22,485 nt of DNA from Patescibacteria group bacterium. GTDB taxonomy: Bacteria > Patescibacteria > Paceibacteria > UBA6257 > 2-01-FULL-56-20. The stretch is from NCBI GenBank assembly GCA_023484365.1, contig JAMDBA010000026.1:1-22485 (forward strand). The letters run 5' to 3'. Made by a program: the position numbers and the translations under genes. Below the pieces are notes generated by a model. The model worked only from the letters and a program-made list of their open reading frames with translations, did not search any database and was not told the DNA's origin. Below, one piece after another: positions 579-19,894 of the stretch; positions within the stretch are counted from its first letter, which is position 1; the number at the start of each line of letters is the position of its first letter.

Positions 579-613
579 TTTACAAAATTCCAATAATAAA
601 GGATAATTTAAAT
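579..613 (+). promoter_or_regulatory. Promoter predicting a leaderless transcript (gene at 614)
   Basis: TTTACA (579-584), a 17-nt spacer and GATAAT (602-607) form a near-consensus promoter. Only 6 nt separate the -10 hexamer from the ATG at 614, so transcription should begin at or next to the start codon. The weak AAAGGA upstream overlaps the -10 and would not be transcribed. Confidence 0.55.
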
Positions 614-889
614 ATGATAAAAATATCCGGAAACGACGTATATGACAACGGGGTAAAAATAGGATGGATAGAAGATAATGATATAATGGACCGCGAATCG
701 CATAAGTTAGGCTATTTTAGCGGTAACGATATTTTTAATATTTCGGGAATAAAGTTGGGATATATTGAAGGAGATGAACTAATTATGAGTAATGGCAAGA
801 TTATTTTGTTTGAAAATTTGAAAAGCCGCGTTCAGGGATCGGCAAACAATATTATACGAGCGGCAATCTACGTTTTCTTTGGGGAGTAG
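614..889 (+). CDS. Beta-repeat protein, resembling 4-fold beta flower proteins
   Basis: This encodes 91 residues made largely of four tandem units of about 16 residues starting near residues 7, 22, 38 and 54. The units follow a pattern like ND-[VI]-[YMF]-D..G.K.GY-[IF].G (for example NDIFNISGIKLGYIEG). Such short beta-hairpin repeats match my recollection of the small '4-fold beta flower' proteins found in many bacteria, whose role is not established. The C-terminal 20 residues (from about SRVQGSANNIIRAA) fall outside the repeat and are partly hydrophobic. No signal peptide is seen, so it is probably cytoplasmic. The start is set by a promoter whose -10 ends 6 nt upstream. The family call is from memory and moderate; the repeats are visible directly. 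Confidence 0.65.
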   Translation: MIKISGNDVYDNGVKIGWIEDNDIMDRESHKLGYFSGNDIFNISGIKLGYIEGDELIMSNGKIILFENLKSRVQGSANNIIRAAIYVFFGE

Positions 890-967
890 TTTGTGTAATC
901 ATATAATTAGGGTTAATATTTAAACAGATATATTTTAAAGCTTATTATTCCCGCCAAGGAGGCATCA

Positions 968-1153
968 ATGGATGGCGAGCCTAAAATCATAAAAGTTGTC
1001 AGGCTGCAATGTCTGGCTTCGCCGATAGGAGCAGATCCCAGAACCCATCTATACGAAATTGAATATGAATACTACAGCAACGGCGTCGTTAAAATGGTCC
1101 CCGGAACAGTAAAAGATCTCGGTCCGGTTGACGAAAAAGACAAAGCAACATAA
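968..1153 (+). CDS. Small hypothetical protein
   Basis: This encodes 61 residues and I do not recognise a family. The strongest evidence that it is real is a near-perfect Shine-Dalgarno sequence, AAGGAGG (955-961), six bases before the ATG, together with a strong terminator immediately after the stop codon. The sequence is soluble and predicted to be mostly beta strand in the middle (LYEIEYEYYSNGVVKMV), with a charged C-terminus (DEKDK). It has a single cysteine at about residue 16. It follows the beta-repeat gene by 78 nt on the same strand, but no terminator was seen between them, so co-transcription is possible. Function unknown. Confidence 0.65.
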   Translation: MDGEPKIIKVVRLQCLASPIGADPRTHLYEIEYEYYSNGVVKMVPGTVKDLGPVDEKDKAT

Positions 1154-1157
1154 AAAT

Positions 1158-1189
1158 AAACCCTAAGGATTCCCTAGGGTTTTTCTTTT
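1158..1189 (+). terminator. Rho-independent terminator after the 968-1153 gene
   Basis: AAACCCTA (1158-1165) pairs with TAGGGTTT (1175-1182) around a 9-nt loop and is followed by TTCTTTT. It starts 5 nt after the stop codon. Confidence 0.8.
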
Positions 1190-1370
1190 GAGATAAGCTT
1201 TAAATCATAAATAATTTGTTATAATAAAATTCAAGAGCAGAAATTAAATTATTTATTATTAGTTCATATTGCGACCAATTAAAACTAACACAAGTCCGGG
1301 CAACGTTTTTCTGACGCTAAAATAGAAGTAAAAGGTTTTTTATGTCTTCTGATACTATTATCCATTTACG

Positions 1371-1886
1371 ATGATTAATAAAATTAAAAATTTTGTTTTT
1401 GGCTTTGATGCCAGACATAGACCGAACGCAACTAAATATATCTTCGGCGCCACTTCGTCAATTATCACCAGCCTGGCTTTGATTATCGGCTTCAACACAT
1501 CCGTTAACGCCAAGGTAAGTATTATCGGCAGCCTGCTCGTTATCGCCCTAGCCGACAACATCTCCGATATGCTAGGTATTCATATTTACCAAGAAACCGA
1601 AGGAATAAAAACGCATGACGTCTGGATATCAAGCTCCACCAATTTCTTGACCAGATTTTTTGTTTCCTTTGTATTCATAATATTGGTTATTTTCCTGCCG
1701 ATGCGAACCGCGGCTATTGTTTCCGTAGCATACGGATTATTCGCGCTGGCTATTTTTAGCTATATTATCGCCGACATTAAAAAGCTTAATCCCGTTCATG
1801 CGATTGCTGAGCATCTATTTATAGCTGTAGTTATAATTCTAATAAGCCAATTTTTAGGAGGATGGATTATTCATCATTATTCTTAA
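1371..1886 (+). CDS. VIT1/CCC1-like membrane protein, putative metal transporter
   Basis: This encodes 171 residues with about five hydrophobic segments (roughly residues 25-42, 45-65, 90-110, 113-135, 145-165). The segment FGATSSIITSLALIIGF, followed by an ALADNISDMLG-type stretch and an amphipathic loop rich in charged residues (IYQETEGIKTHD), resembles the first half of the VIT1/CCC1 family of Fe/Mn transporters, where a Gly-rich first helix precedes a conserved loop after helix 2. It is somewhat shorter than many family members. If the call is right it would export or sequester Fe2+ or Mn2+ at the cytoplasmic membrane. No Shine-Dalgarno is visible; TATTAT (1356-1361) lies 9 nt before the ATG, so a leaderless or very short leader is possible. 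The helical protein at 1991 follows on the same strand. Confidence 0.6.
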   Translation: MINKIKNFVFGFDARHRPNATKYIFGATSSIITSLALIIGFNTSVNAKVSIIGSLLVIALADNISDMLGIHIYQETEGIKTHDVWISSSTNFLTRFFVSFVFIILVIFLPMRTAAIVSVAYGLFALAIFSYIIADIKKLNPVHAIAEHLFIAVVIILISQFLGGWIIHHYS

Positions 1887-1990
1887 TCGTTGTCGCTAAC
1901 AACAAAAAATAGCTTAAGCAGTTTTGTTTGCGGAGTTTTTAAGACTCAGCAGTAAAATTAATATAAAGGTCGCAATTCAACACAATAATA

Positions 1991-2197
1991 ATGAAAAACA
2001 TAAATTACGATTTAATTAAACTCCTGCATACTTCTTTAGATAAAATCTGGAGGTTGGAAAAACACTATATAAAAGACGCGGTAGACGCAAAGCACGATCC
2101 CGCCAAACTTAAAAAAATGCTGGAAGAAGAAGAAAAGCACGCGAAAATGCTGGTTGGAGAGATCAAAGCCAGGATGGACGCTAGGGTATTTGACTAA
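1991..2197 (+). CDS. Small all-helical acidic/basic protein
   Basis: This encodes 68 residues predicted to form two long helices separated by a short DAKHDPAKL break. The second helix has a ferritin-like look (LEEEEKHAKMLVGEI, an E..EE.H pattern), and the first contains LEKHY. The protein is too short for a complete four-helix ferritin-like domain but could dimerise. I cannot assign a family. It lies 104 nt downstream of the VIT-like gene, which is suggestive because ferritin-like domains occur fused to VIT domains (MbfA type). A possible -10 (TATAAA, 1962-1967) precedes it. There is no good Shine-Dalgarno next to the ATG. Ferritin-like identity is an inference. Confidence 0.55.
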   Translation: MKNINYDLIKLLHTSLDKIWRLEKHYIKDAVDAKHDPAKLKKMLEEEEKHAKMLVGEIKARMDARVFD

Positions 2198-2229
2198 AAT
2201 AAGTGGCGAAAAGATTAATTATTATGGAA

Positions 2230-2255
2230 TATAAAAGGCGGCCGATGGCCGCCTT
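2230..2255 (-). terminator. Terminator between convergent genes
   Basis: AAGGCGGCC (2235-2243), loop GAT, GGCCGCCTT (2247-2255) form a perfect 9-bp GC-rich hairpin. On the minus strand it is followed by TTATATT, so it mainly serves the 2260-2907 gene. On the plus strand it may also stop transcription from 1991-2197, though the T-run there is poor. Confidence 0.75.
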
Positions 2256-2259
2256 ATGG

Positions 2260-2907
2260 TTATAATAAAGGGAATATTTTTTTAGCGAAAAATAATTTAA
2301 CCTGATTCTCTAGCTCCGCCTCGCTCACGCTGCCGCCATTATCAATTATCCAATCGGCCCGACCGCCTATTTCTTCAACAAAAATTTCCGTTTTAACATT
2401 GTCTTGCTCGCGGAATTTTTCAATTGAAATTCCCGCTTCGCCTTCGCGCTGCCTTATTTTAGCGCGAGCAAAACGAGTGTTAAAATCTGATTTAATATAA
2501 AGTATTAATCCTCTTTTTTCGGGTATATTTCTTATCATTTCTTCATCAGCCAGCCAACGGACTCCGTCAGCGATTACTATTTCCGCCTTGTCGTTTGTAA
2601 GACGATTATAAATCGCGTTTGAAAGAGCGTTATTGCCAAAAGCGTTTTCGGAAACCATTACCTGCGACATTTTCTGAAGATTATCCCTGTTAACATTTAT
2701 GCTCCAAAGATCGAGTGTCTCCTCAAGGACATCGCGAAATCTTTGCCGGCTTGCGGTCAACTTCGCGATCTTTCTCCGATTTTCAAGATAGTCATCCTTA
2801 AAATAACCAGCCCGGCATTTCGAGCCGCTGACAATTTTCATTATGATACCACCTACTGTTTCTTTTCCGGCCAAAGGCTTTCCTGTTAAGCCGATCACGA
2901 CTTTCAT
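2260..2907 (-). CDS. P-loop kinase, dephospho-CoA / nucleoside monophosphate kinase-like
   Basis: This encodes 215 residues. The N-terminus VVIGLTGKPLAGKET contains a Walker A P-loop (GKPLAGKET, residues 9-17). Downstream the segment EIVIADGVRWLADEE fits the Walker B/acceptor-site strand of NMP-kinase folds, and an Arg-rich lid-like helix (RFARAKIRQREGE) is followed by a KFREQD segment. The layout matches the dephospho-CoA kinase / deoxynucleotide monophosphate kinase group (archaeal UPF0200-like and phage dNMP kinases). The substrate cannot be told from sequence. A good ribosome-binding site (AAAGGAAA, 5-nt spacing) supports the start. It is divergent from the cytidylate kinase gene at 3072. 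Kinase fold is confident; substrate is not. Confidence 0.75.
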   Translation of the reverse strand: MKVVIGLTGKPLAGKETVGGIIMKIVSGSKCRAGYFKDDYLENRRKIAKLTASRQRFRDVLEETLDLWSINVNRDNLQKMSQVMVSENAFGNNALSNAIYNRLTNDKAEIVIADGVRWLADEEMIRNIPEKRGLILYIKSDFNTRFARAKIRQREGEAGISIEKFREQDNVKTEIFVEEIGGRADWIIDNGGSVSEAELENQVKLFFAKKIFPLL

Positions 2908-3060
2908 TTTTTCCTTTCAGCCACGCTTTATAACGGCGAGGCATTTTATTTTTAAAATTCTAAATCAAGGATAATCAAAACAAAATATCAAGTCAATTTT
3001 TATAAGCTTGACCTAAGGCGTTATTTAAAGTTATAAATAAAATAGCAACTTAAAAACCAA

Positions 3061-3067
3061 AAGGAGG
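3061..3067 (+). promoter_or_regulatory. Shine-Dalgarno that fixes a GTG start
   Basis: AAGGAGG lies 4 nt before the GTG at 3072. It decides the start of the cytidylate kinase gene, which has no in-frame ATG at this position. Confidence 0.8.
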
Positions 3068-3071
3068 GTTT

Positions 3072-3638
3072 GTGGCTATAATTGCGATAAGCGGTTCGGT
3101 CGGATGCGGAAAAACAACAATTGGAAAAAGATTGGCCGAAAATCTTGGATATAAATATCATTATACAGGCGGCATCTTTAAAGAGATGGCGCAAAAAGAA
3201 GGGAAAACAATTAATGAATTTTATGAAGAAATAAAGGCTAATCCGGCGATAGAAAAAGAGATAGACGCGCGACAGGAAAAATTAATGATGGAAAGCGACA
3301 ATCTTGTCGTTGAGGGCAGAATGGCGCCGTTTTTAGATTGCGGTTCCAATAAAATTAAGATCAACGTAAAAATTACAGCATCACTTTCAGAATTAGCAAA
3401 CCGGCTGGCGAAAAGGCCGGAAAACCAAGAAAAAAATATTAACATCATAAAAAAAGAGGCGCGCCAAAGGATGAAAACAGAAAAAGAGCGCTATCGTAAG
3501 CTATATGGCATAGAAGATTATCTTGCCGACAAGCACTTTGATGTCATTATAGACACAACAAACCTTAGCGCCGATGAAGCGTTTAAAAAAACAAAAAATA
3601 AAATAGATTACTTTATTAGAAAAAAGCAGGGCGCGTAA
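3072..3638 (+). CDS. cmk: Cytidylate kinase, archaeal type
   Basis: This encodes 188 residues. It phosphorylates CMP/dCMP with ATP, in pyrimidine nucleotide supply. The P-loop is ISGSVGCGKTTIGKRLA (residues 6-22), followed by a YHYTGGIFKEMA segment that matches the substrate-binding [ST]-G-D/G-x-F-R/K motif of the archaeal cytidylate kinase family. Next come PAIEKEIDARQ and NLVVEGRMAPF, then a lid region with KEARQRMKTEKERYRKLYGI and the C-terminal FDVIIDTTNLS. All are typical of the short archaeal-type enzyme rather than the longer E. coli Cmk. It starts at GTG with a strong Shine-Dalgarno. The stop codon lies in the loop of a terminator hairpin. The neighbour at 2260-2907 is another P-loop kinase, divergently transcribed. 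Confidence 0.85.
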   Translation: MAIIAISGSVGCGKTTIGKRLAENLGYKYHYTGGIFKEMAQKEGKTINEFYEEIKANPAIEKEIDARQEKLMMESDNLVVEGRMAPFLDCGSNKIKINVKITASLSELANRLAKRPENQEKNINIIKKEARQRMKTEKERYRKLYGIEDYLADKHFDVIIDTTNLSADEAFKKTKNKIDYFIRKKQGA

Positions 3639-3648
3639 GCCCTGCTTT
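3623..3648. terminator. Bidirectional terminator overlapping the cmk stop codon
   Basis: AAAGCAGGGC (3623-3632), loop GCGTAA, GCCCTGCTTT (3639-3648) form a 10-bp stem. The TAA stop codon of the cytidylate kinase gene is in the loop. On the minus strand the stem runs into TTTCT after the TTT of the arm, giving six T in a row, so it is also a good terminator for the glycosidase gene 3666-5009. Confidence 0.8.
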
Positions 3649-3665
3649 AAATTTTAAATAATATT

Positions 3666-5009
3666 TTAAATCCAACCCAATTCTTTAATTCTCTGATAAG
3701 CGCTCAAGCAAGAAACAAGATTCCCCATAAAATTTTTAGGCGGTTTATATAATTTCCCGATTGCCGGCCTGGAATTATAAGGGTTAAATATCTCGTAAGC
3801 GCCACCCGCTTCTTTAAAAAGATTTATATTTCCCAAGAGATCGGCAATCGCCTCTTTTTGGTATTGCGACCTGACTAAATTATCCGGATGGTTGACGGAT
3901 ATCTTTATCTTAACTTGAATATTTTGACAAGTCAGCCAGGGCCAAATGTAAAGATTGTGGTATTCCTGATTGCCGATTATCTTCAAAAGCTTCATCAGTT
4001 GATTTTTGGGATAAGGCGGAGAAAAATTTTTCAATCCCGAAACTGTCTTCAACCGATCGCTAAAAGTTTTTTGGACTCTCGCGCATTCCTCAGCGCTCAA
4101 CAAGTAAAGTGAACCGAAAACGGAAGCGGCGGCATCTATCCTGTCCAATCCCGCCTCGGCCCTAAAATAAGCTCCTTCACGATTGTATAATTTTTCCAGA
4201 ATACTTTTTTTCGTCTTTATAAATTTTTCGCGGTAAAATTCGGCTTCCTCTTTTTTGTCAAGTTGAAGCGAGATGAAACTCATAAGTTTCAACGCTCTAG
4301 CCCATAATATGTTAATTCCTCCGAGCTTCCCGCCGCGCTTAATGCTGTCAGCCCAATCAACATTCTTCCGTTGAGATAAAACCAAACTGTCGGCTTTATC
4401 AACTTTACGCTCAAAATAATTAACGGCTTTTTGAATTTTAGCAAAATTTATTTTGGCAAATTCCTTTCCTTTGGAAGACGCGATAAAAAATTCTCCAATG
4501 GCAATGATTATAGCGGGAACCGTGTCTTCGGCATTCAAAAAATCTTGTCCCTCGTAAACGGGACGCTCTTTTCTTCTCTTAATTACGTTTTCTATAAAAA
4601 TAAAAAGTTGTTTGGAAAGCCAACGCAATCCTGGCGCAAGTTTTATGAGCATATATTCTCTTTCTACTTTTAGAGGTAATGCGCCGTCAGCTCTTTGGTA
4701 AGAAAAAATCGTTTTAAGAGAATCCTCAACCGCCTCCGGCTTATTGGCGATAAAATAATTTGCCGCGGCATGAGCAAAATCCCGCGACCAAATCTGATTA
4801 TAAAAATTATCTTTGGGATCGGCCGAAGGGAAAATGCCAAAACCAGGAAAATAATTATGCGCCAGCAACCTTTCTGATTGAAAAGCAAACTCATGAAGCA
4901 AAGCGTTGTATTCTGAAGATAAACGCAAGGGATTAAGCTCTTTCGTCTTACCGGAATTGACCACCTTAAACAATCTTGATAACCGCCATTCTTCGGTTGT
5001 ATTTTCCAT
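3666..5009 (-). CDS. Six-hairpin (alpha/alpha)6-type glycoside hydrolase-like protein
   Basis: This encodes 447 residues with no signal peptide, so probably cytoplasmic. The pattern fits (alpha/alpha)6-barrel glycosidases such as the debranching-enzyme, GH15 and GH100/invertase-like groups. Visible landmarks are YNQIWSRDFAHAA (residues 70-82, the aromatic-x-RD motif), NAEDTVPAII (159-168), VDWADSIKRGGK (217-228, a candidate catalytic Asp), YIWPWLT (354-360) and GGAYEIFNP (402-410, a candidate catalytic Glu at 406). The substrate is probably an alpha-glucan or a small alpha-glucoside or fructoside, but I cannot choose. An AAAAGGTG ribosome-binding site precedes the ATG. It is a single gene ending at a terminator shared with cmk. 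Fold confident, specificity unknown. Confidence 0.7.
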   Translation of the reverse strand: MENTTEEWRLSRLFKVVNSGKTKELNPLRLSSEYNALLHEFAFQSERLLAHNYFPGFGIFPSADPKDNFYNQIWSRDFAHAAANYFIANKPEAVEDSLKTIFSYQRADGALPLKVEREYMLIKLAPGLRWLSKQLFIFIENVIKRRKERPVYEGQDFLNAEDTVPAIIIAIGEFFIASSKGKEFAKINFAKIQKAVNYFERKVDKADSLVLSQRKNVDWADSIKRGGKLGGINILWARALKLMSFISLQLDKKEEAEFYREKFIKTKKSILEKLYNREGAYFRAEAGLDRIDAAASVFGSLYLLSAEECARVQKTFSDRLKTVSGLKNFSPPYPKNQLMKLLKIIGNQEYHNLYIWPWLTCQNIQVKIKISVNHPDNLVRSQYQKEAIADLLGNINLFKEAGGAYEIFNPYNSRPAIGKLYKPPKNFMGNLVSCLSAYQRIKELGWI

Positions 5010-5814: not shown

Positions 5815-8235
5815 TTATCTCTTGCTGCCGGTTTTTATTTTTTTCTCTGTCGCTAAAACAGTAAGTATCATTTTTAAAACTGAATCGGGATTTAACGATA
5901 TGCTGTCAATTTTATTTTTTACCAAAAACTCAACCATCTCCGGATAATCGGATGGCGCCTGGCCGCAAATGCCTATTTTAACTCTAGGCTTGGCGCGATG
6001 AGCTTTTTCAATAGCTTCTTTGATAAGCCTCAAAACCGCCGGATTTAATTCCGAAAAACTTCCGGCAACCGTTTTAGAGTCGCGGTCAATACCCAATGTC
6101 AACTGGGTTAAATCGTTAGAACCGATAGAAAAACCATCAAAAAGTTTGGCGAAATCTTCCGCTAAAATGGCGTTAGAAGGAATCTCAACCATTTGATAAA
6201 TTTTTAAGACATTTTTCCCGCGCCGAAGACCATTGTCTTCCATAATTTTAATCGTCCTTTTCGCTTCTGTTAAAGTCCGGACGAAAGGCAACATTACGAT
6301 TAAATTAGTTAAGCCCATCTCTTCTCTGACCTTTTTAATCGCCCTGCATTCCAATGCAAAAGCCGGAGCAAATTTCGGATCGCTATAGCGTGAAGCGCCC
6401 CGCCAACCAATCATCGGATTTTCTTCGTGAGGTTCAAAAATCTTTCCTCCTAGCAAACTAGAATATTCATTACTCTTAAAATCAGAAGTGCGGACTATAA
6501 CCGGCTTAGGATAGAAAGAGGCGGCAATTCTGGCGATGCCATAAGCCAATCTGTCAACATAAAACTCAACCTTGTCGTTGTAACCCAAAGTTTGTTCATT
6601 AATTTCGGAAATAAGCTTTTTGTCTTTAATCTTTTTAAAATTTAAAAGCGCAAGCGGATGGATTTTAATATAGTCGTTGATTATAAATTCTTCTCTCGCC
6701 AAACCGACTCCATCGTTAGGGATGAAAGAAAATCCAAATGATTTTTCCGGGTCGCCCACATTCATCATTATCTTAGTTTCGGGCTTTTTCAATTTTTTCA
6801 GGTCTATTTTTTTAATCTGATAATCTATTTTACCGTCATAAATTTTTCCGACTTCGCCCTCGGCGCAAGAAACGGTAATATCCCTGCCCGTCTTTATCAC
6901 TTCAGTAGCGGTTTTTGTCCCGACAACCGCGGGCACACCCAATTCACGGCTGACAATAGCAGCATGCGATGTGCGCCCGCCGGAATTAGTAACTATAGCC
7001 GAAGCAATTTTCATTATCGGCTCCCAATCAGGATCGGTCATTTCGGTAATTAAAACTTCGCCAGGTTTGAATTCGGAAATATTAGATATGCTTTTAATAA
7101 CCCGCGCTTTACCTTGGCTGATTTTTTCTCCAACCGCGACTCCCTCAATTAATACTCTGCCTTTATTCTTTAATAAATAAGACTCGTAAATATAAGGATC
7201 TTTTATTGACTGAACCGTCTCTGGTCGCGCCTGGACTATAAACAAATCATTTCTCTGACCGTCTTTCGCCCATTCAATATCCATCGGCCGGCCGTAATGC
7301 TTCTCAATTAAAACTCCCCATCGCGCCAACTGCAAAATTTCCTTGTCAGACAAAGCAAACTTTCCCCTGTCTTTTTCCGGCGTGGAAATGTTAAGCGTGG
7401 GCTTGGCTCCTTTATGATAAATCAACCTTTTAGCCTTCGTTCCAAGGCTCTTGTCAATTACGGCCTTATAACCGGACGCCAAAGCCGGCTTGAAAATAAT
7501 ATATTCATCCGGATTAACACGGCCCAAAACTACATTTTCGCCCAAACCGTAAGAAGCGTTTATTAAAACAATGTTCCTGAAACCGCTGTCGGTATCCAAT
7601 GTGAACATAACGCCGGAAGCAGCCAAATCAGAACGAACCATTTTCTGAACGCCGATAGAAAGATAAACTTTAAAATGATCAAAGTGGCGATCGTGACGAT
7701 AAGAAATAGCGCGATCGGTAAAAAGGGAAGCGAAGCATTTTTTAACGGCCATTGAAAGGTTGGCTTCGCCTCGTATATTTAAATAGCTTTCCTGCTGGCC
7801 GGCGAAAGAAGCTGACGGCAAATCCTCGGCAGTCGCCGAAGAACGCACCGCCACATCAACTTCGCCAACTCTGTATTCCTTAGAAAGCGCGGCGTAAGCT
7901 GACATAATTTCTTTTTTTAAATCAGGAGGAATTTTTGCTTTAACTATTGCCTCCCTTACCTTAGCTCCTTTTTCTTCTAAATTATGAATATCCTTAGTAT
8001 TGATTCCCTTCAAAATTCCTCTAATTTTTTTGTCCAGATTATTGAATTTCAAAAAATACTTATAAGCGGCTGCTGTAATGGCAAATCCATGAGGCACTTT
8101 GATTCCTGCCGGCGTTACTTTCTGCCACATTTCTCCTAAATTGGCATTTTTTCCACCGACCAATCCGACGTCGTCTTTTGTTATATCGTCAAACCAAAGG
8201 ACCAAGGCTGACTTTTTTGCTGATAAATTTTTCAT
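5815..8235 (-). CDS. ppsA: Phosphoenolpyruvate synthase (pyruvate, water dikinase)
   Basis: This encodes 806 residues. It interconverts pyruvate + ATP and PEP + AMP + phosphate. Domains in order: an ATP-grasp-like nucleotide-binding domain (residues about 10-340, with VGGKNANLGEM, AVRSSATAEDLPSASFAGQQ and IVQARPETVQS); the phosphohistidine swivel domain (about 365-460) with catalytic His424 in SGGRTSHAAIVSRELGVP; and a PEP/pyruvate TIM barrel (about 480-795) with NDGVGLAREEF, RTSDFKSNEY, GWRGASR and the catalytic Cys757 in GICGQAPSD. All key residues are present and length is normal. The -10 TATAAT ends 6 nt before the ATG, predicting a leaderless message. rsmI follows 3 nt downstream. With enolase and glycerate kinase nearby it completes the route between glycerate and pyruvate. 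Confidence 0.95.
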   Translation of the reverse strand: MKNLSAKKSALVLWFDDITKDDVGLVGGKNANLGEMWQKVTPAGIKVPHGFAITAAAYKYFLKFNNLDKKIRGILKGINTKDIHNLEEKGAKVREAIVKAKIPPDLKKEIMSAYAALSKEYRVGEVDVAVRSSATAEDLPSASFAGQQESYLNIRGEANLSMAVKKCFASLFTDRAISYRHDRHFDHFKVYLSIGVQKMVRSDLAASGVMFTLDTDSGFRNIVLINASYGLGENVVLGRVNPDEYIIFKPALASGYKAVIDKSLGTKAKRLIYHKGAKPTLNISTPEKDRGKFALSDKEILQLARWGVLIEKHYGRPMDIEWAKDGQRNDLFIVQARPETVQSIKDPYIYESYLLKNKGRVLIEGVAVGEKISQGKARVIKSISNISEFKPGEVLITEMTDPDWEPIMKIASAIVTNSGGRTSHAAIVSRELGVPAVVGTKTATEVIKTGRDITVSCAEGEVGKIYDGKIDYQIKKIDLKKLKKPETKIMMNVGDPEKSFGFSFIPNDGVGLAREEFIINDYIKIHPLALLNFKKIKDKKLISEINEQTLGYNDKVEFYVDRLAYGIARIAASFYPKPVIVRTSDFKSNEYSSLLGGKIFEPHEENPMIGWRGASRYSDPKFAPAFALECRAIKKVREEMGLTNLIVMLPFVRTLTEAKRTIKIMEDNGLRRGKNVLKIYQMVEIPSNAILAEDFAKLFDGFSIGSNDLTQLTLGIDRDSKTVAGSFSELNPAVLRLIKEAIEKAHRAKPRVKIGICGQAPSDYPEMVEFLVKNKIDSISLNPDSVLKMILTVLATEKKIKTGSKR

Positions 8236-8241
8236 AGTTTA

Positions 8242-8247
8242 ATTATA
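8242..8247 (-). promoter_or_regulatory. -10 box of ppsA, leaderless spacing
   Basis: On the minus strand a consensus TATAAT (8247-8242) ends 6 nt before the ATG at 8235. The -35 region falls in the T-tract of the preceding terminator (TTTTTT), so the -10 must carry most of the signal. No Shine-Dalgarno fits in the 6-nt gap. Confidence 0.55.
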
Positions 8248-8260
8248 ACTCTTATAAATT

Positions 8261-8288
8261 AATAAAAAAACCCGACTAAGTCGGGCTT
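8261..8288 (-). terminator. Terminator between the 8336-8659 gene and ppsA
   Basis: On the minus strand AAGCCCGAC, loop TTA, GTCGGGTTT form a 9-bp stem (one wobble) followed by TTTTTTATT. It separates the upstream transcript from the ppsA-rsmI operon, whose promoter starts within its T-tract. Confidence 0.85.
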
Positions 8289-11320: not shown

Positions 11321-11355
11321 TTGACAGATTAATGATTTTGATGTATTTTCATAAT
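11321..11355 (+). promoter_or_regulatory. Consensus promoter with leaderless spacing (alpha/beta hydrolase)
   Basis: TTGACA (11321-11326), an exact 17-nt spacer and TATTTT (11344-11349) are followed by 6 nt and then ATG at 11356. The quality of the -35 and the exact spacing make this the clearest promoter in the window. Confidence 0.7.
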
Positions 11356-12324
11356 ATGAATATAGAATCGCCAAAAAATAACCCTGGCGCCGGCAAAAAA
11401 ACCGAAAAAGCAGCCAAAGAAATAGAGTCTGGAATAAAAAAATCCGAAGGCGGTGAAATAGAAATATCTTGGAGAAAATTTTCCTCAGAGTCCGCAAAGG
11501 AATCGGAGAAAACCGGTCGCGCCGTTATTTTCCTGCCCGGATGGGCGGAAAACGCCGGAGACAAGTCGCTTGACGGCATTAGCCAGGCATTTGCCGAAGC
11601 CGACTCTTCATCTACTTATCTTATTTCCACCAGCCCCGAGAAGCCGCTCAAAGATCCTTTAGAAACAGAAGCTATGGCTGTCGGAGATTTTATTAAAGAA
11701 AATAAAATAAAAGAGATTGTAATTGCAGGCTATTCCAAAGGCGGAGACAAAGCGATAAACCTCGCCAATCTCCTCCAAGAAAACAACACGGAAAAAATAA
11801 AAATAAAAGGATTAGTGCTTATGGGCCCGGTTGGTCTTTATAATCAAAAAAGCACGGAGTTGACGAAGAATTTTGTTAAAGATATTATTAACACGCCTAA
11901 AACAAAAGATTCCGCTAGTATAGCTATTGACTCAATCTTTGACATTTTAGAGGAAGTATCGCGCGCAGGAATAAAATACCCGAAGATATTTTTAGAAGAT
12001 ATCAAGGCTATGGCGAAAATGAACGAAAAAACTTCCAAAATAAAAGCGCCTGTCGTCCTCATCCAGGGAGCAAAAGACTTGGTTTCCGACCCTAAAAGGG
12101 TAATCCCGCCAGAAATAATAAAAGAAGAAGGAAAGGGGCGGGGAGACAACTATATGGACCCCAGAGAAGAATATTTGAAAAATAATTTATTCCAAAACAG
12201 TCCTTACGTTAAGATGGTAATAGCCGAAAAGATGGGCCACCACTCGCTTCCCTTCTTCCGCCCCGATCAAATAGCTAGAGTAGCCATAGGTCTTTTAGAG
12301 AGATATTACAGAAACAATAGGTAA
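11356..12324 (+). CDS. Alpha/beta hydrolase of unknown substrate
   Basis: This encodes 322 residues from the ATG at 11356. A longer frame from 11317 exists, but it would place the start inside the promoter TTGACA-17-TATTTT. The alpha/beta-hydrolase fold is supported by VIFLPGWAENAG (residues 57-68, strand and oxyanion loop), IVIAGYSKGGDKA (121-133, nucleophile elbow, Ser127), PVVLIQGAKDLVSDP (232-246, acid Asp241) and AEKMGHHSLPF (290-300, catalytic His295 or His296). The triad is therefore complete. The first 30 residues are Lys/Glu-rich and probably disordered. A lid of about 60 helical residues lies between residues 165 and 225. No signal peptide is seen. Substrate unknown; esterase or peptidase-like are both possible. 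Confidence 0.85.
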   Translation: MNIESPKNNPGAGKKTEKAAKEIESGIKKSEGGEIEISWRKFSSESAKESEKTGRAVIFLPGWAENAGDKSLDGISQAFAEADSSSTYLISTSPEKPLKDPLETEAMAVGDFIKENKIKEIVIAGYSKGGDKAINLANLLQENNTEKIKIKGLVLMGPVGLYNQKSTELTKNFVKDIINTPKTKDSASIAIDSIFDILEEVSRAGIKYPKIFLEDIKAMAKMNEKTSKIKAPVVLIQGAKDLVSDPKRVIPPEIIKEEGKGRGDNYMDPREEYLKNNLFQNSPYVKMVIAEKMGHHSLPFFRPDQIARVAIGLLERYYRNNR

Positions 12325-12362: not shown

Positions 12363-12371
12363 TGTTATAAT
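12363..12371 (+). promoter_or_regulatory. Extended -10 promoter, leaderless spacing (thioredoxin-like gene)
   Basis: TGTTATAAT (TG at 12363-12364, TATAAT 12366-12371) is an extended -10 ending 7 nt before the ATG at 12379. No clear -35 is seen, as is usual for extended -10 promoters. Confidence 0.55.
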
Positions 12372-12378
12372 GTAATAA

Positions 12379-12630
12379 ATGCTTTTAGAATTTTATGGCT
12401 TAGAATGCCCTCATTGCAAAAATATGGATCCTCTTGTAAACCGTTTTGAAAAGGAAACCGGCAAAAAATTTGAAAAATACGAAGTCTGGCATAATGAAGA
12501 AAACGCCAAAAAAATGAACGAATACGATAAAGGAAGTTGCGGCGGCGTGCCGTTTTTTATAAACACCGAAACTAATAATATAATCTGCGGCGAAGCTCCC
12601 TACGAAGAACTGATCCGCTTAAGCGCTTAA
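12379..12630 (+). CDS. Small thioredoxin-fold protein with CPHC motif
   Basis: This encodes 83 residues. The first strand FYGLECPHCKNMDPLVNRFE carries a CPHC active site (Cys10 and Cys13), the motif of DsbA-like oxidants. A later GGVPFFIN segment supplies the cis-proline loop of the thioredoxin fold and NIICGEAPYEEL closes the fold. Extra cysteines lie at GSCGG (about residue 54) and ICG (about residue 70). There is no signal peptide, so it should act in the cytoplasm or be held at the membrane by a partner. It ends 6 nt before the TspO gene and is probably co-transcribed with it. The glutaredoxin-like short length distinguishes it from true thioredoxins. The partner is unknown. Confidence 0.8.
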   Translation: MLLEFYGLECPHCKNMDPLVNRFEKETGKKFEKYEVWHNEENAKKMNEYDKGSCGGVPFFINTETNNIICGEAPYEELIRLSA

Positions 12631-15687: not shown

Positions 15688-15702
15688 TGATATAATTAAT
15701 CA
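15688..15702 (+). promoter_or_regulatory. Extended -10 promoter, leaderless spacing (zinc-ribbon gene)
   Basis: TGATATAAT (TG at 15688-15689, TATAAT 15691-15696) is an ideal extended -10 and ends 6 nt before the ATG at 15703. No Shine-Dalgarno can fit. Confidence 0.6.
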
Positions 15703-16044
15703 ATGGATAATGATTTAAAATGTCCTTATTGCGGAGCGCCGATAGACGCCAATTTTTATTTTTGTCCCAACTGCGGAAAACAATTAAGAATAAAACCCGC
15801 GCAAACAAGCGTGATGAGCCAGATAGGCGTTTATTTATTGAGTTTCTTTTTGCCTCCCCTTGGCTTATGGCCGGCTTATAAATATTTAAAACAAAGCGAC
15901 GGTAAATCAAAAATGATAGGCTGGATCGCTGTTGCTTTAACCGTCATTTCACTCGTCTTAGCCGTCTGGCTATTTCAAGGCTTCACTGCTTATCTTAATC
16001 AATCAATAAATAATCAGCTTAATTCAACTAATTTACTGTATTAA
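15703..16044 (+). CDS. Zinc-ribbon membrane protein
   Basis: This encodes 113 residues. The N-terminus carries a CPYCGAPID...FCPNCGKQL zinc ribbon (two CxxC pairs, about residues 6-25), then a linker, and two hydrophobic segments at about residues 42-60 and 72-95. A PPLGLWPAYKYLK motif follows the first membrane segment. This arrangement (zinc_ribbon plus short membrane helices) is common in small bacterial proteins whose role is unknown. The second helix ends in a polar tail (LNQSINNQLN). The start is fixed by an extended -10 six bases upstream, predicting a leaderless mRNA. It does not appear to share an operon with the RRM gene, which has its own promoter. Function unknown. Confidence 0.75.
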   Translation: MDNDLKCPYCGAPIDANFYFCPNCGKQLRIKPAQTSVMSQIGVYLLSFFLPPLGLWPAYKYLKQSDGKSKMIGWIAVALTVISLVLAVWLFQGFTAYLNQSINNQLNSTNLLY

Positions 16045-16095
16045 AAGCTCTGTTTGCCGCTCAATCAGCCGTCTTGACTTTTGATACTCAACCTA

Positions 16096-16146
16096 TTGAC
16101 TTTTTAAAAGCTATCTGCTAACATTAATCTTATCCTAGAAAGGATA
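16096..16146 (+). promoter_or_regulatory. Strong promoter and 5' stem-loop of the RRM gene
   Basis: TTGACT (16096-16101), a 17-nt spacer and TAACAT (16119-16124, with an upstream TG) form a near-consensus promoter. Transcription should start near 16131, exactly where TATCCT-AGAA-AGGATA (16131-16146) can fold as a hairpin. The remaining leader to the ATG at 16257 is about 110 nt. Confidence 0.6.
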
Positions 16147-16256
16147 GTAGGTTTTCTTAGTTGGTTTCTTTCGCAATTTATCGCTTAAGAATCTTAAAGA
16201 TCGTTTTTGATTTTAAGTAAACTAGGTAATAGTCGCCCTACTCAATACAAAAAAGT

Positions 16257-16538: not shown

Positions 16539-16556
16539 TAAGTTGATCCTCAACCA

Positions 16557-16576: not shown

Positions 16577-16580
16577 GATG

Positions 16581-16608
16581 ACACCCCGATATTAATCGGG
16601 GTGTTTTT
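16581..16608 (+). terminator. Terminator behind the RRM gene, inside the IS end
   Basis: ACACCCCGAT (16581-16590), loop ATTA, ATCGGGGTGT (16595-16604) plus TTTT make a strong 10-bp rho-independent terminator on the plus strand. By the boundaries proposed here it belongs to the insertion sequence, not to the RRM gene. Confidence 0.85.
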
Positions 16609-16617
16609 GACTGAAAG

Positions 16618-17067
16618 TCAACTAAAGATCTGGAAGGTCTTATCTTCCTCTTCTTCTTGCTTGCCTTGTTGTTCAATATAATCCTTAATGACCTTTTCGG
16701 TCACTACGCCAGTGGTAACGCAAAAATAACCAATAGCCCACATATGCTGACCCCAAAACGATTTGCCAAGCTTAGGGAATTCCATTTGAAGTTTTCTTGA
16801 TGATTCGCCTTTGAGATGTTGGATTATTCTTGAAATTGCTATGTAAGGAGGTGTTTCCAAGAGAATATGAACATGATCGGGCCCGATGGCGCCTTTGAGT
16901 ATATCAATCTTTTCAGTTGAACAAATTTGCCTGATTATTTCTCTCAATCTGAGCGCAATATCATCTACCAATATCTTTTTGCGATACTTGGTAATCCAGA
17001 CTATATGGTATTTATTATCGTATACCGTATGGCTTGTCCGATGATATTGCTGCCCGCTCATGTTCAT
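16618..17067 (-). CDS. tnpA: IS200-like transposase TnpA (HUH/Y1)
   Basis: This encodes 149 residues, full length for the family. It cuts and joins single-stranded DNA at the element ends. The N-terminal YHIVWITKYRKKIL is the family signature, GPDHVHILLETPP (about residues 63-75) holds the HUH metal-binding pair, and the C-terminal helix VIKDYIEQQG (about 127-136) holds the nucleophilic Tyr. FWGQHMWAIGYFCVTTG in between is also typical. A Glu-rich tail follows (KQEEEEDK). It ends at TGA, the only TGA stop I noted in the window. No strong Shine-Dalgarno precedes the ATG; GAAGGT lies about 12 nt upstream. All catalytic residues are present, so the protein should be active. Confidence 0.93.
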   Translation of the reverse strand: MNMSGQQYHRTSHTVYDNKYHIVWITKYRKKILVDDIALRLREIIRQICSTEKIDILKGAIGPDHVHILLETPPYIAISRIIQHLKGESSRKLQMEFPKLGKSFWGQHMWAIGYFCVTTGVVTEKVIKDYIEQQGKQEEEEDKTFQIFS

Positions 17068-17104
17068 ATTCTACCATACCTTCAACGCTTATTGATGCTA
17101 AAGC

Positions 17105-17123
17105 CTCGCACTAAAGTGCAGAG
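17105..17123 (+). repeat. IS left-end hairpin
   Basis: CTC-GCAC-TAAA-GTGC-A-GAG is a 7-bp stem with one unpaired base. On the transposase strand the bulge is a T in the 5' arm, as in the end hairpins of IS608. Confidence 0.7.
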
Positions 17124-17145
17124 TTTTCCTCTCGGAGGAGGCAAT

Positions 17146-17170
17146 AAAATGCCCTTCACGAGGGCATTTT
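17146..17170. terminator. Bidirectional terminator beside the IS
   Basis: AAAATGCCCT (17146-17155), loop TCACG, AGGGCATTTT (17161-17170) form a 10-bp stem with A/T tracts at both feet. It serves the minus-strand gene 17203-17451. It may have been the original terminator of the RRM gene before the insertion. Confidence 0.7.
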
Positions 17171-17202
17171 ATAATCGCAGACCCATGCGCTATCAATCTT
17201 CC

Positions 17203-17451
17203 TTATTTTTTAATGCTCGTATTATGCATCCAGACCATATATGCCGCGAAAATCCATGCGAAGACGAATAGGTCGATCGCGCCGATGATCATCCCTCCGA
17301 CGGTCCACGAAAATCCGGGTAGAAGCTCGAAGAGCGACGCATGCAGATCGGCAATTGGTCCGCTTAAGAAGAATCGGTAAATCATGCAGATGATATAGAA
17401 CACCTCGATACCAAGCGCGCAGAGCCATCCGTATCTTTTAAGTGAAAGCAT
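17203..17451 (-). CDS. Small membrane protein, DUF5676-like
   Basis: This encodes 82 residues with two or three hydrophobic segments (about residues 8-28 and 45-75). LSLKRYGWLCALGIEVFYIICMIY, then LHASLFELLPGFSW and GGMIIGAIDLFVFAWIFAAYMVWMHN resemble the DUF5676 family of small membrane proteins, which I recall being found next to copper ATPases. Here the gene lies 31 nt downstream of such an ATPase on the same strand and is probably last in its operon; the terminator at 17146-17170 follows. Its role is unknown, perhaps an accessory to metal export. The ribosome-binding site is weak. Confidence 0.7.
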   Translation of the reverse strand: MLSLKRYGWLCALGIEVFYIICMIYRFFLSGPIADLHASLFELLPGFSWTVGGMIIGAIDLFVFAWIFAAYMVWMHNTSIKK

Positions 17452-17482
17452 TTGTTTTTTATTTTTTGATTATTTCCGACCT

Positions 17483-19693
17483 TTATAGTTTTTTTCTTTT
17501 TAAAAGCATTGCGTTTACCGCGACGATAACCGTGCTTAATGACATAAAGACAGCACCGACTGCAGGCGAAAGCAGAATGCCCCGCGACGCAAGCACTCCC
17601 GCGGCAAGCGGAATCGCGACTATGTTGTATCCCGCCGCCCACCAGAGATTTTGTATCATCTTGGCATAAGTAAGGCGCGAAAGCGTAATAATTTTTGGAA
17701 TGTCGCGCGGATCATTTTTGACAAGGATAATTCCCGCTGATTCTATCGCCACATTTGTACCGGCGCCAATTGCTATTCCTAAATCCGCTTGCGTAAGCGC
17801 GGGAGCGTCATTTATCCCGTCTCCCACCATAGCAACCCGCTTTCCTTCTGACTGTAAAATTTTTACTTTTTCCGATTTTTGACCAGGTAACACCCGGGCA
17901 AAGTATTTATTGATGCCAAGTTCACCCGCAACCCATTGCGCCACATCCTCCGCGTCGCCGGTTATCATAGCCACATCAACTTTCATATCTTTTAACGATT
18001 TAATCGCTTGACGAGATTCTTCACGAATAACGTCCGCAAGAGCAATAACACCCGCAAGCATTCCGTCGCGAAGCACGTATATAATTGTCTTGCCCTTCTT
18101 GTTTTCAAACGCGATATCGGCTGGAAGCAAAATATTTTTTCCCTCAACAATACCTTCTCCGCCGACAATTATTATGACGTCGTTTATCCGCGCCTGAGAT
18201 CCCTTGCCGGAAATCCGCTTAAAATCAGTTATCTTATCAAGCGCAATATGATGAGTATTGGCGTAAGCGACAATAGCTTTTGAAATGGGGTGTTCGGAAT
18301 ACGAATCAACAGAAGCGGCAAGCCGAATAATCTCATTTTCGTCCTTGATGTTAATCGGCCAAATGTTTGTAACGCCATACTCTCCCTTTGTAAGAGTGCC
18401 GGTCTTATCAAAAAGGACTATATCTATATTCCGCGCCGCCTCAAGCGCAAGGCGCCGCTTAACAAGAAAACCATTTTGAGCCGCCTTAGTTGTTGATATT
18501 GAAGCGACAAGCGGCACCGCCAAACCAAGCGCGTGCGGGCAAGCGATAACTAAAACGGCGACGAGCCGTTCAATAGCGAACGCCGTTCCGCCTCCTGCCG
18601 CTATCCAAGCAACGACCGTTATAGCGCCTACGCCGACCGCAATGATAGTGAGATAAAACGCGGCGCGATCGGAAAGTATTTGCAAGCGCGACTTAGACGC
18701 CTGCGCTTCAGCTACAAGTCTCATCACGCCCGCGAGGAATGTCTTGTCGCCAATTTTTGTTATTTTAATCTTTAAAATTCCATCGGAGTTAACAGTTCCC
18801 GCGATAGTAAAACTTCCTTTTTTCTTTGTTATAGGTTTAGATTCTCCCGTCGCTATTGATTCGTCCACGGAAGAATCACCGTCAATGACTTCTCCGTCGG
18901 CGGGAATTTTTCCGCCAGGCCTCACAATAACAATATCCCCTTCTCGAAGATCGGCGAGCGAAATAATTTCAGTTTTATCCCCCCGCGCTACTTCCGCAGT
19001 GTCGGGCAAAAGTTTGGACAATTCTTTTAACGCGCTCTGAGCTCCGGAAACAGCGCGCATTTCAAACCAGTGGCCAAGAAGCATAATCGTGATAAGCGTC
19101 GCGAGCTCCCAGAACAGCGTATCAGGACGGTTGGCGATAACCGCGTAAAGACTCCAGATATACGCCGTCGTAATAGCAATCGCTATAAGCGTCATCATTC
19201 CAGGAAGGCGAGCCCTTAATTCACGCCACGCGCTCGCAACGAATACCCAGCCGCCATAAAAGAAAATTATAGACGCTAAAATAAATTGCAGATAAGCCGA
19301 TCCGGGAAATGCCGGCGCGGTCCAATGAAACAATGATTGCGTTAGGTCTGAATAAAGCACAATTGGAATAGAAAGAATCAGGCTTACCCAGAATTTCCTT
19401 TTGAATATATTTACGTGATGGCCTTCATGCTTATTAAAAGACGAGATATGATCGCTATGGTTATCGTGGCCGGCATCATTGCCTTCCATCTGCATAGCCG
19501 ACGGCTGTTTTGCCTGCTTCGTTTTTACCGGAATAAGGTTCATTCCGCATTCCGGACATATTCCCGGCTTGTCCTGGATTATTTCCGGATGCATCGGACA
19601 GGTATAAGCGACGCTCTTTGATGATTCAGTATTTTTATTCATTTTTTTGAAATATATTATTTTAATTAATTCTTTAGCGATGCCTTCAGCCAT
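17483..19693 (-). CDS. copB: Copper-exporting P1B-3-type ATPase (CopB-like)
   Basis: This encodes 736 residues. It pumps copper (or silver) out of the cytoplasm using ATP. The N-terminus has a heavy-metal-binding motif, YTCPMHPEI...CPECGMNLIP (about residues 30-55), and a His-rich linker (residues 75-93, six His). Next come TGES (282-285), the transmembrane CPH motif in IACPHALGLAVP (385-387), DKTGT with the phosphorylated Asp429, SEHPISKA (HP 468-469), GDGINDAP (624-631) and MSLST in the last helix (717-721). CPH and the His-rich N-terminus define the P1B-3 subgroup. The ATG at 19693 directly follows the TAA of the 54-residue gene, so translation is coupled. An internal ATG at 19642 (MNKNTESS) is an alternative start. 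Confidence 0.93.
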   Translation of the reverse strand: MAEGIAKELIKIIYFKKMNKNTESSKSVAYTCPMHPEIIQDKPGICPECGMNLIPVKTKQAKQPSAMQMEGNDAGHDNHSDHISSFNKHEGHHVNIFKRKFWVSLILSIPIVLYSDLTQSLFHWTAPAFPGSAYLQFILASIIFFYGGWVFVASAWRELRARLPGMMTLIAIAITTAYIWSLYAVIANRPDTLFWELATLITIMLLGHWFEMRAVSGAQSALKELSKLLPDTAEVARGDKTEIISLADLREGDIVIVRPGGKIPADGEVIDGDSSVDESIATGESKPITKKKGSFTIAGTVNSDGILKIKITKIGDKTFLAGVMRLVAEAQASKSRLQILSDRAAFYLTIIAVGVGAITVVAWIAAGGGTAFAIERLVAVLVIACPHALGLAVPLVASISTTKAAQNGFLVKRRLALEAARNIDIVLFDKTGTLTKGEYGVTNIWPINIKDENEIIRLAASVDSYSEHPISKAIVAYANTHHIALDKITDFKRISGKGSQARINDVIIIVGGEGIVEGKNILLPADIAFENKKGKTIIYVLRDGMLAGVIALADVIREESRQAIKSLKDMKVDVAMITGDAEDVAQWVAGELGINKYFARVLPGQKSEKVKILQSEGKRVAMVGDGINDAPALTQADLGIAIGAGTNVAIESAGIILVKNDPRDIPKIITLSRLTYAKMIQNLWWAAGYNIVAIPLAAGVLASRGILLSPAVGAVFMSLSTVIVAVNAMLLKRKKL

Positions 19694-19858
19694 TTATTTG
19701 ACCGCGTGTTTTATGATCTCAAGATTGCAACTTTTATATTCTTTGCACCAAGCTGCGCATTTATCGGCCCACTTTTTCTCTCTATAACGCATTCCGCATT
19801 CAGGACATTGATATAATTTATCATCTTCTTTTATGGTGGCTGGGTATTTATGCTTCAT
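19694..19858 (-). CDS. 54-residue Cys-rich protein heading the copper operon
   Basis: This encodes 54 residues from the ATG at 19858. A longer frame from 19894 is rejected because its start lies in the promoter (TTGACG-18-TATACT). The body YQCPECGMRYREKKWADKCAAWCKEYKSCN holds five cysteines in CxxC, CxxxC and a final Cys, and looks like a small zinc ribbon or copper-binding module. No transmembrane segment. It is the first gene of the copper ATPase operon and its stop codon abuts the ATPase start (TAA-ATG), implying tight co-expression. It could be a metallochaperone or a storage protein; this is inferred from position and cysteines, not from a known family. Confidence 0.75.
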   Translation of the reverse strand: MKHKYPATIKEDDKLYQCPECGMRYREKKWADKCAAWCKEYKSCNLEIIKHAVK

Positions 19859-19864
19859 AATTTT

Positions 19865-19894
19865 AGTATACCCCCAACAGGTATTATCCGTCAA
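19865..19894 (-). promoter_or_regulatory. Promoter of the copper ATPase operon, leaderless spacing
   Basis: On the minus strand TTGACG (19894-19889), an 18-nt spacer and TATACT (19870-19865) are followed by 6 nt and the ATG at 19858. An inverted repeat occupies the spacer. Confidence 0.6.
19868..19884. promoter_or_regulatory. Candidate copper-responsive operator (CsoR-like)
   Basis: ATACCCCCAACAGGTAT is a 5-bp inverted repeat (ATACC/GGTAT) around a 7-bp centre. It resembles the TACCC...GGGTA pseudo-palindromes bound by CsoR copper repressors, and its place between -35 and -10 of the copper operon is where such operators usually lie. No csoR gene is in the window. Confidence 0.45.

What the first reader, a model, noticed from the sequence alone, without database searches (positions are those of the whole stretch)
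579..19894. Recurrent leaderless-promoter signature across unrelated genes
Six genes on both strands (614, 8235-, 11356, 12379, 15703, 19858-) have a -10 hexamer (GATAAT, TATAAT, TATTTT, TATAAT, TATAAT, TATACT) ending 6, 6, 6, 7, 6 and 6 nt before the ATG. Three have a clear -35 at 17-18 nt and two have an extended -10 TG. None has room for a Shine-Dalgarno. Other genes in the same window (968, 2907-, 3072, 8659-, 13439-) have strong AAGGAGG-like sites. The constant spacing is hard to explain by base composition alone and suggests a large share of leaderless mRNAs in this lineage.
Basis: partly seen in the sequence, partly recalled or inferred. Interest (0 to 1): 0.7.

Follow-up and report, generated by a model that had tools for sequence, protein, structure and literature searches.

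The report
Leaderless gene starts in Patescibacteria
Several genes here have their promoter so close to the start codon that their messenger RNA probably begins at the first codon; the same pattern recurs across this large group of tiny bacteria, though usually in a minority of genes.

Summary
In the window, 6 of 26 gene-start ATGs have a TATAAT-like hexamer (at most 1 mismatch) ending 6-7 nt upstream, against 11 of 508 other ATGs (Fisher P 6e-5); exact TATAAT is 3 of 26 against 0 of 508. TANNNT peaks at a 6-nt gap: 60 of 552 ATG starts, against 18 at 5 nt and 29 at 7 nt. Of 46 leading genes with that hexamer, 17 carry TGn and 11 a TTG at a 17-nt spacer, against 7 of 320 each in other leading genes, so many are promoters, not mere AT-richness. 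A pattern survey of 192 genomes of the phylum gave 1448 hits at gap 6, 215 at gap 5, 720 at gap 7. Leaderless mRNA from sigma-70-type promoters is well supported but unproven without 5' ends. "A large share" is overstated: about 5-9% in G390, about 19% in G120. Gene 614 also has an SD-like AAAGGA. Unexpectedly, 54 of 148 listed 16S 3' ends in the relatives' class lack the anti-Shine-Dalgarno core.

The parts
579..616 (+). Putative leaderless promoter of the beta-flower-like ORF 614-889: -35 TTTACA 579-584, 17-nt spacer, -10 GATAAT 602-607, 6-nt gap, ATG 614. Weakest of the six: SD-like AAAGGA at 598-603 offers a rival reading.
8233..8247 (-). -10 TATAAT 8247-8242, 6-nt gap, ATG 8235 of the PEP-synthase-like gene (ppsA). 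Neither TGn nor a -35 was seen.
8260..8288 (-). Terminator-like hairpin and T run for the upstream gene 8659-8336. A promoter after it has only about 32 nt before the ppsA ATG, leaving no room for a leader of normal length.
   Evidence: consensus scan only
11321..11358 (+). -35 TTGACA 11321-11326, 17-nt spacer, -10 TATTTT 11344-11349, 6-nt gap, ATG 11356 of an alpha/beta-hydrolase gene. The promoter lies inside the longer frame from 11317.
   Evidence: start supported
12363..12381 (+). Extended -10 TGT-TATAAT (12363-12371), 7-nt gap, ATG 12379 of a thioredoxin-like gene. Two in-frame TAA codons directly precede the ATG, so the start cannot lie further upstream.
   Evidence: start agrees with homologues of equal length (P0145, 86% identity, 83 aa, whole query covered)
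15688..15705 (+). Extended -10 TGA-TATAAT (15688-15696), 6-nt gap, ATG 15703 of a zinc-ribbon protein gene.
   Evidence: start agrees with a homologue of equal length (P0030, 90% identity, 113 aa, whole query covered)
19856..19894 (-). -35 TTGACG 19894-19889, 18-nt spacer, -10 TATACT 19870-19865, 6-nt gap, ATG 19858 of a small ORF (54 aa, no Pfam match).
   Evidence: start not checked by homologues
961..970 (+). Contrast: SD-led start (GGAGG of AAGGAGG before ATG 968; the AA lies just upstream). Similar at 3072 (+), 8659 (-) and 13439 (-).

Best explanation
Most of the six are real sigma-70-type promoters whose -10 box ends 6-7 nt before the ATG, so transcription starts at or within a nucleotide or so of the A of the start codon and the mRNA is leaderless. 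Translation would then start on a 5'-terminal AUG without Shine-Dalgarno pairing. The lineage mixes three kinds of start: SD-led, leaderless, and leadered without SD. Leaderless starts are a recurrent minority mode across Patescibacteria. Shown: the sequence register, its statistical excess, and its linkage to -35 and TGn elements in relatives. Inferred: the actual 5' ends, the initiation route, and that each individual window gene is leaderless.
For: Window enrichment of the register. G390: gap-6 TANNNT 60 of 552, with 18 at gap 5 and 29 at gap 7. Leading genes: 46 of 366 observed against 24.8 expected from the column frequencies (P 4.5e-5); operon-internal genes 8 of 132 against 5.9 (P 0.23). 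TGn in 17 of 46 hits versus 7 of 320 other leading genes (P 4.7e-12); TTG at a 17-nt spacer 11 of 46 versus 7 of 320 (P 6.4e-7). Internal ATGs show no gap-6 peak (0.9% of 2678 in-frame, 2.0% of 4599 out-of-frame). G120 and G179 give stronger versions: TGn in 23 of 27 versus 3 of 116, and 15 of 20 versus 4 of 68. Survey of 192 genomes: TGNTATAAT to ATG at gap 6 gives 1448 hits, gap 5 215, gap 7 720; reversed-pattern controls 108, 103, 134; gap 6 exceeds gap 5 in 157 genomes, equals it in 22, is below in 13. The cliff between 5 and 6 is what a start site limited by the ATG itself would give.
Against: No RNA data. The window's own genome is not held, and the relatives are distant (enolase 51-53%, glycerate kinase 46-49%); by glycerate kinase, genomes outside that order score nearly as well (G517 402 bits against G390 409), so the window's order is not settled. 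The bare TANNNT excess at gap 6 is not significant in G001 (27 of 354 vs 22.0 expected) or G705 (5 of 132 vs 4.3), and weak in G598 (15 of 132 vs 7.8, P 0.012). In G120 operon-internal genes also show it (11 of 96 vs 3.3), so the contrast leading/internal is not general. In the strict single-start subset of G390 the peak is less clean (22 at gap 6, 18 at gap 9, 17 at gap 11, of 214). G390 has only 3 hits to the strict survey pattern, and G388, G389, G391 have 4, 4 and 1. The nine ppsA orthologues from named Patescibacteria loci that one search printed (of 15 hits) show no gap-6 TATAAT. Gene starts come from my own simple caller, which covers 77% of G390. Gene 614 has an SD-like AAAGGA.
Confidence: 0.83

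Rival explanations
1. AT-richness just upstream of starts in a 40% GC genome makes chance TATAAT-like hexamers; the constant gap is selection by the reader's eye.
For: TANNNT alone is only 5 of 26 in the window, and promoter-like sites as a whole are only slightly above shuffles. In G001 the bare TANNNT peak is not above column expectation.
Against: Exact and near TATAAT in this register is concentrated at gene starts (3 of 26 vs 0 of 508; 6 of 26 vs 11 of 508). TGn and TTG elements are in register in relatives. The 1448 / 215 / 720 profile and the low reversed-pattern counts do not look like composition.
Confidence: 0.1
2. The -10 boxes are real but transcription starts a few nucleotides upstream or downstream, or a second upstream promoter makes the main leadered mRNA; the genes are near-leaderless or have dual 5' ends.
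For: Gap 7 is also strongly enriched (720 versus 215 at gap 5). Gap 8 exceeds expectation among all ATG starts of G120 (P 3.4e-5), G705 (P 0.017) and G390 (P 0.03). Gene 12379 has a 7-nt gap.
Against: The cliff between gaps 5 and 6 points to the A of ATG as the limiting start nucleotide. The terminator-like hairpin just upstream of ppsA argues against a leadered transcript there.
Confidence: 0.3
3. Gene 614 is SD-led through AAAGGA at 598-603, and GATAAT is incidental.
For: AAAGGA could pair with a canonical 16S tail; other genes in the window have strong SDs.
Against: The spacing (10 nt between) is long for an SD, and a 10-of-12 promoter match sits at exactly the leaderless register.
Confidence: 0.4

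Closest known systems
TA-led (leaderless) genes of bacteria, Zheng et al. 2011 (PMC3160421; abstract and the section on distribution in bacteria read)
   Same: TATAAT-like box about 10 bp upstream of the start codon, coexisting with SD-led genes; TG before the box in some low-GC genomes.
   Different: Of their 953 bacterial genomes, the groups in which they report leaderless genes, as listed in the section read, name no candidate phyla. Their highest shares (Actinobacteria around 20%, Deinococcus-Thermus around 40%) exceed my G390 estimate.
'-10 region adjacent to ORFs' pattern of Deinococcus-Thermus, Zhong et al. 2025 (PMC12340547; outline, two Results sections and found passages read)
   Same: TANNNT 6-7 bp before the ORF, acting as the promoter; some boxes lie inside an annotated longer frame, as at 11356.
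   Different: Supported there by transcriptome and reporter data; about 30% of ORFs; different phylum. The paper scanned the bacterial domain (Fig. S7, legend seen, figure not held), and its text does not mention Patescibacteria or CPR.
Leaderless transcriptome of Mycobacterium tuberculosis (PMC3898074, search listing with start of abstract only)
   Same: Large-scale leaderless transcription in a bacterium, by title.
   Different: Mapped experimentally by RNA-seq of 5' ends; different phylum.

Membership tests
Leaderless (TA-led) bacterial genes | -10-like box about 6-7 nt before the start codon | tested here: met
   enrichment
Leaderless (TA-led) bacterial genes | The box behaves as a promoter element (-35 / TGn in register) | tested here: met
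   Five of six window genes carry one or the other (sequence); ppsA 8235 has neither. Group-level enrichment in G390, G120, G179 and, for TGn, G001.
Leaderless (TA-led) bacterial genes | No Shine-Dalgarno upstream | tested here: inconclusive
   By eye met for five of six; 614 has AAAGGA 10 nt before the ATG
Leaderless (TA-led) bacterial genes | Genome-wide peak at the fixed distance | tested here: met
   In relatives, not in the window's own genome: G390, G120, G179 clear; G598 weak; G001 and G705 not significant by bare TANNNT; survey of 192 genomes
Leaderless (TA-led) bacterial genes | mRNA 5' end at the start codon | not testable with these tools
   needs 5'-end RNA sequencing
Leaderless (TA-led) bacterial genes | Start codon assignment correct | tested here: inconclusive
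   Supported by homologues for 11356, 12379, 15703. First start codon of the frame for 614, 8235, 12379, 15703. 19858 not checked.

The most novel reading that the evidence does not exclude
In Patescibacteria the Shine-Dalgarno / anti-Shine-Dalgarno interaction has become dispensable. Leaderless and SD-less leadered starts carry much of gene expression, SD use has faded even where the 16S tail is intact (G001), and the anti-SD core has been lost, apparently many times, in the class of the window's relatives (54 of 148 listed 16S 3' ends; five such ends checked as the true ends of full-length 16S genes, plus the altered one of G100). A few lineages (G120, G168) instead expanded extended -10 leaderless promoters.
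Probability: 0.5. Interest if true: 0.72.

Novelty: new member of a known kind. Interest (0 to 1): 0.52.

Why it matters
Patescibacteria are a very large part of bacterial diversity (recalled), with reduced ribosomes and hardly any genetics. If a recurrent share of their genes is leaderless, gene finders that look for SD sites may misplace starts (11317 versus 11356 here), and these cells become natural material for asking how ribosomes initiate without Shine-Dalgarno pairing. My searches for 'leaderless' with Candidate Phyla Radiation, Patescibacteria or Parcubacteria, and for 'leaderless mRNA' with Saccharibacteria, in the held open-access library listed three papers in all; the 'leaderless' passages of two concern YchF and a protein-secretion tool, not leaderless genes in these bacteria, and the third, PMC10434106, I saw only as a listing. 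Most subscription papers are not held, so this is weak evidence of absence.

Tried and rejected
Bare TANNNT as the sole measure: too AT-dependent (not significant in G001), so I used elements in register and a stricter pattern. ppsA orthologues as a conservation test: no shared gap-6 TATAAT in the nine named Patescibacteria loci printed; the script took the nearest in-frame start codon, so some starts may be off. A rise of leaderless starts where the anti-SD is lost: not seen in the two genomes examined (gap 6: G598 15 of 132, G705 5 of 132). A changed SD matching G100's altered 16S tail (AGAAG in place of GGAGG): no enrichment (2 of 79, controls 1 and 3); AAGGAG could still pair with that tail through one G-U, so G100 is altered rather than wholly lost. 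Literature search combining 'leaderless transcription', 'Shine-Dalgarno' and 'Pribnow box': nothing.

Limits: my gene caller is home-made (5'-most ATG within a coding-score tolerance; one search failed with a script error and was mended). In some searches I kept only ATG starts with 70 nt upstream: G390 552 of 583 called genes, G001 354 of 358, G120 289 of 302, G179 147 of 149, G598 132 of 137, G705 132 of 141; 'leading' and 'internal' leave out the genes in between (in G390 366 + 132 of 552). The phylum and class searches drew 373-383 or 192 genomes from larger groups, so 'nearest' means nearest of those drawn. The 32 genomes outside the group came from ppsA hits, include at least two archaea by record title, and got no gap-5 control; L037 was not held. 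The 16S-tail pattern misses genes whose last matched position is G (for example G054); one search found 158 matching genomes and I counted the 148 that were listed, one end each (second, canonical copies in G443 and G458 left out).

Searches show its matched tail lying 860 nt past the end of the 16S match, so it is withdrawn as a checked case; G598, G705, G129 and G671 were checked instead and hold.
Full report
What was claimed and what is there. The six hexamers, gaps, -35 and TGn elements are in the sequence as stated. Two details change. Gene 614 has an SD-like AAAGGA at 598-603. Starts 11356 and 19858 are inner starts of longer frames. For 11356 the inner start is supported: of four homologues aligned, P0009 begins at it, P0002 (79% identity, 322 aa) and P0008 two residues after it, and P0003 five residues before it, at a Met-Tyr-Phe that matches the window residues encoded over the -10 box. 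Starts 12379 and 15703 agree with homologues of equal length.

Chance in the window. Among 534 ATGs on both strands, 26 are gene starts by my list. TATAAT with at most one mismatch at gap 6 or 7 occurs at 6 of 26 starts and 11 of 508 other ATGs (P 6.3e-5); that six includes 21638- and not 11356. Exact TATAAT occurs at 3 of 26 and 0 of 508 (P 1.0e-4). TANNNT occurs at 5 of 26 and 22 of 508 (P 0.007). Against first-order random upstream sequences, the observed 6 and 3 were not reached in 3000 trials; 5 TANNNT had P 0.016. Promoter-like sites as a whole are only slightly above shuffles (59 against 48.4, sd 6.1), but 3 of the 12 sites that match 10 of 12 bases end exactly 6 nt before a start ATG.

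Where the window comes from. No genome is held for it. Its ppsA matches mixed metagenome bins at about 60%. By enolase the best of the genomes drawn from the phylum is G100, and its order (five genomes, four with a match) gives 51-53% identity. By the neighbouring glycerate kinase the best of 383 genomes drawn from the class is G390 of the same order (49%), but G517, outside that order, scores nearly as well; the window's order is therefore not settled. The reference G001 lies behind a locus titled Candidatus Falkowbacteria, which NCBI places in the Patescibacteria group. 'Phylum of G001' is what I call Patescibacteria below.

In G390, 552 ATG starts give TANNNT counts of 18, 60, 29 and 35 at gaps 5, 6, 7 and 8. 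Leading genes have 46 of 366 at gap 6, expected 24.8 from the column frequencies (P 4.5e-5); operon-internal genes have 8 of 132, expected 5.9. The 46 carry TGn in 17 and a TTG at spacer 17 in 11, against 7 and 7 of 320 other leading genes (P 4.7e-12 and 6.4e-7). In-frame internal ATGs show 0.9% at gap 6. In the 214 starts without any other start codon up to 60 nt downstream, gap 6 has 22 but gaps 9 and 11 have 18 and 17. G120 has 50 of 289 at gap 6 (expected 15.1) and TGn in 23 of 27 leading hits; its operon-internal genes also show the peak (11 of 96, expected 3.3). G179 has 26 of 147 (expected 11.5) and TGn in 15 of 20 leading hits. Results against: G001 27 of 354 (expected 22.0, not significant, although TGn is 7 of 16 versus 2 of 144); G598 15 of 132 (expected 7.8, P 0.012); G705 5 of 132 at gap 6 (not significant) and 9 at gap 8 (P 0.017).

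How large a share. In G390 the excess at gap 6 is 27 of 552 over the column expectation (about 5%), or 32 of 366 leading genes over the mean of gaps 14-29 (about 9%). In G120, gaps 6 to 8 together exceed expectation by about 54 of 289 (19%). So 'a large share' does not hold for the relative tested. SD-led starts are also few in G390 (AGGAG in 24 of 581, controls 6 and 1), common in G120 and G179 (73 of 298, controls 4 and 0; 34 of 149, controls 0 and 0) and nearly absent in G001 (4 of 357, controls 2 and 3), all.

Phylum survey without annotation. TGNTATAAT followed by ATG at gap 6, 5 and 7 gave 1448, 215 and 720 hits in the same 192 genomes; the reversed pattern gave 108, 103 and 134. Gap 6 exceeded gap 5 in 157 genomes, equalled it in 22 and was below it in 13. 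Without the four richest genomes the counts are 1194, 204 and 632. G120 (100) and G168 (86) stand out; G048 and G066 prefer gap 5 (11 each, against 4 and 6 at gap 6). In 32 mostly bacterial genomes outside the group there were 62 gap-6 hits in 125.4 Mb with 23 reversed-pattern hits. The order nearest to the window is poor in this strict pattern (G390 3, G388 4, G389 4, G391 1; G100 2).

Mechanism. With a sigma-70 -10 box ending 6 nt before the ATG, the usual start point about 7 nt downstream is the A of ATG (recalled general knowledge). The cliff between gap 5 and gap 6 fits that limit. At ppsA a terminator-like hairpin ends at 8268 and the ATG is at 8235, so a promoter in between can hardly make a leader. 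The register and the promoter elements are shown; the 5' ends and the initiation route are inferred.

An unexpected companion finding. The 16S 3' end keeps CCUCC in all but three (G019, G100, G129) of 97 matched genomes of the phylum sample (counted by eye). In the class of G100, 83 of 148 listed ends have CCUCC, 11 have one change and 54 lack the core, 48 of these even UCC. Checked against the 16S model, the altered ends of G054, G100, G598, G705, G129 and G671 are the true ends of full-length matches; that of G357 is not (it lies 860 nt beyond the match, perhaps behind an insertion) and is not counted as checked. G598, with such a tail, has AGGAG before 0 of 132 starts and fewer GGAG/GAGG/AGGA than its controls (3 against 11 and 16); G705, also with such a tail, is less clear (AGGAG 2 of 132, controls 0 and 2; 10 against 4 and 5). 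G001 hardly uses SD although its tail is canonical. This suggests SD disuse first and anti-SD erosion later. Leaderless starts do not rise in the two such genomes examined. The papers found with anti-SD terms and CPR terms do not report such loss in the passages I read (listing only); the review on Era says that most CPR have lost Era and that Era binds this site (PMC10582724, passages only).

Compared with what is known. This is the TA-led class of Zheng et al. 2011 (abstract and one section read) and the Deinococcus-Thermus -10 pattern of Zhong et al. 2025 (two sections and passages read), now seen across a phylum sample of Patescibacteria. It works like those; membership by mapped 5' ends is untested.

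Noticed in passing
L105 (G054), L106 (G100), L255 (G598), L256 (G705), L257 (G129), L258 (G671) and the 16S ends listed: 54 of 148 listed 16S 3' ends in the class of the window's relatives lack the CCUCC anti-Shine-Dalgarno core, with varied replacement sequences that suggest repeated loss; six altered ends were confirmed as true 16S ends.
   Followed up: partly
L107 (G357), 2922-3833: A 16S 3'-end-like tail lies 860 nt beyond the end of the 16S model match: perhaps an insertion or intron in the 16S gene.
   Followed up: no
G048, G066: In these two genomes the extended -10 sits more often 5 nt than 6 nt before ATG (11 vs 4 and 11 vs 6): perhaps a lineage with a start-site register shifted by one base.
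   Followed up: no
G120 and G168: Extended -10 leaderless-type promoters are exceptionally common (100 and 86 strict hits per genome of about 0.7 Mb) beside abundant SD sites in G120; the lineage is unnamed here.
   Followed up: partly
window 16096-16256 (+): The RRM RNA-binding gene 16257 has a TTGACT-17-TAACAT promoter-like site and so perhaps a leader of roughly 125 nt without SD. A motif GTCGYCYTAC, 15-28 nt before the ATG, recurs upstream of its homologues in G390 and G001 but not in L077: possibly a conserved 5'-UTR element.
   Followed up: partly
G001 (L149-L168): SD-like words before starts are below control regions (8 of 357 vs 28 and 18) although the 16S tail is canonical: SD disuse with an intact anti-SD.
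   Followed up: partly
window 20109-19939 (-): A small cysteine-rich ORF of 57 aa, below the 60-aa listing limit, lies between 19858- and the ORF 20764-20147.
   Followed up: no
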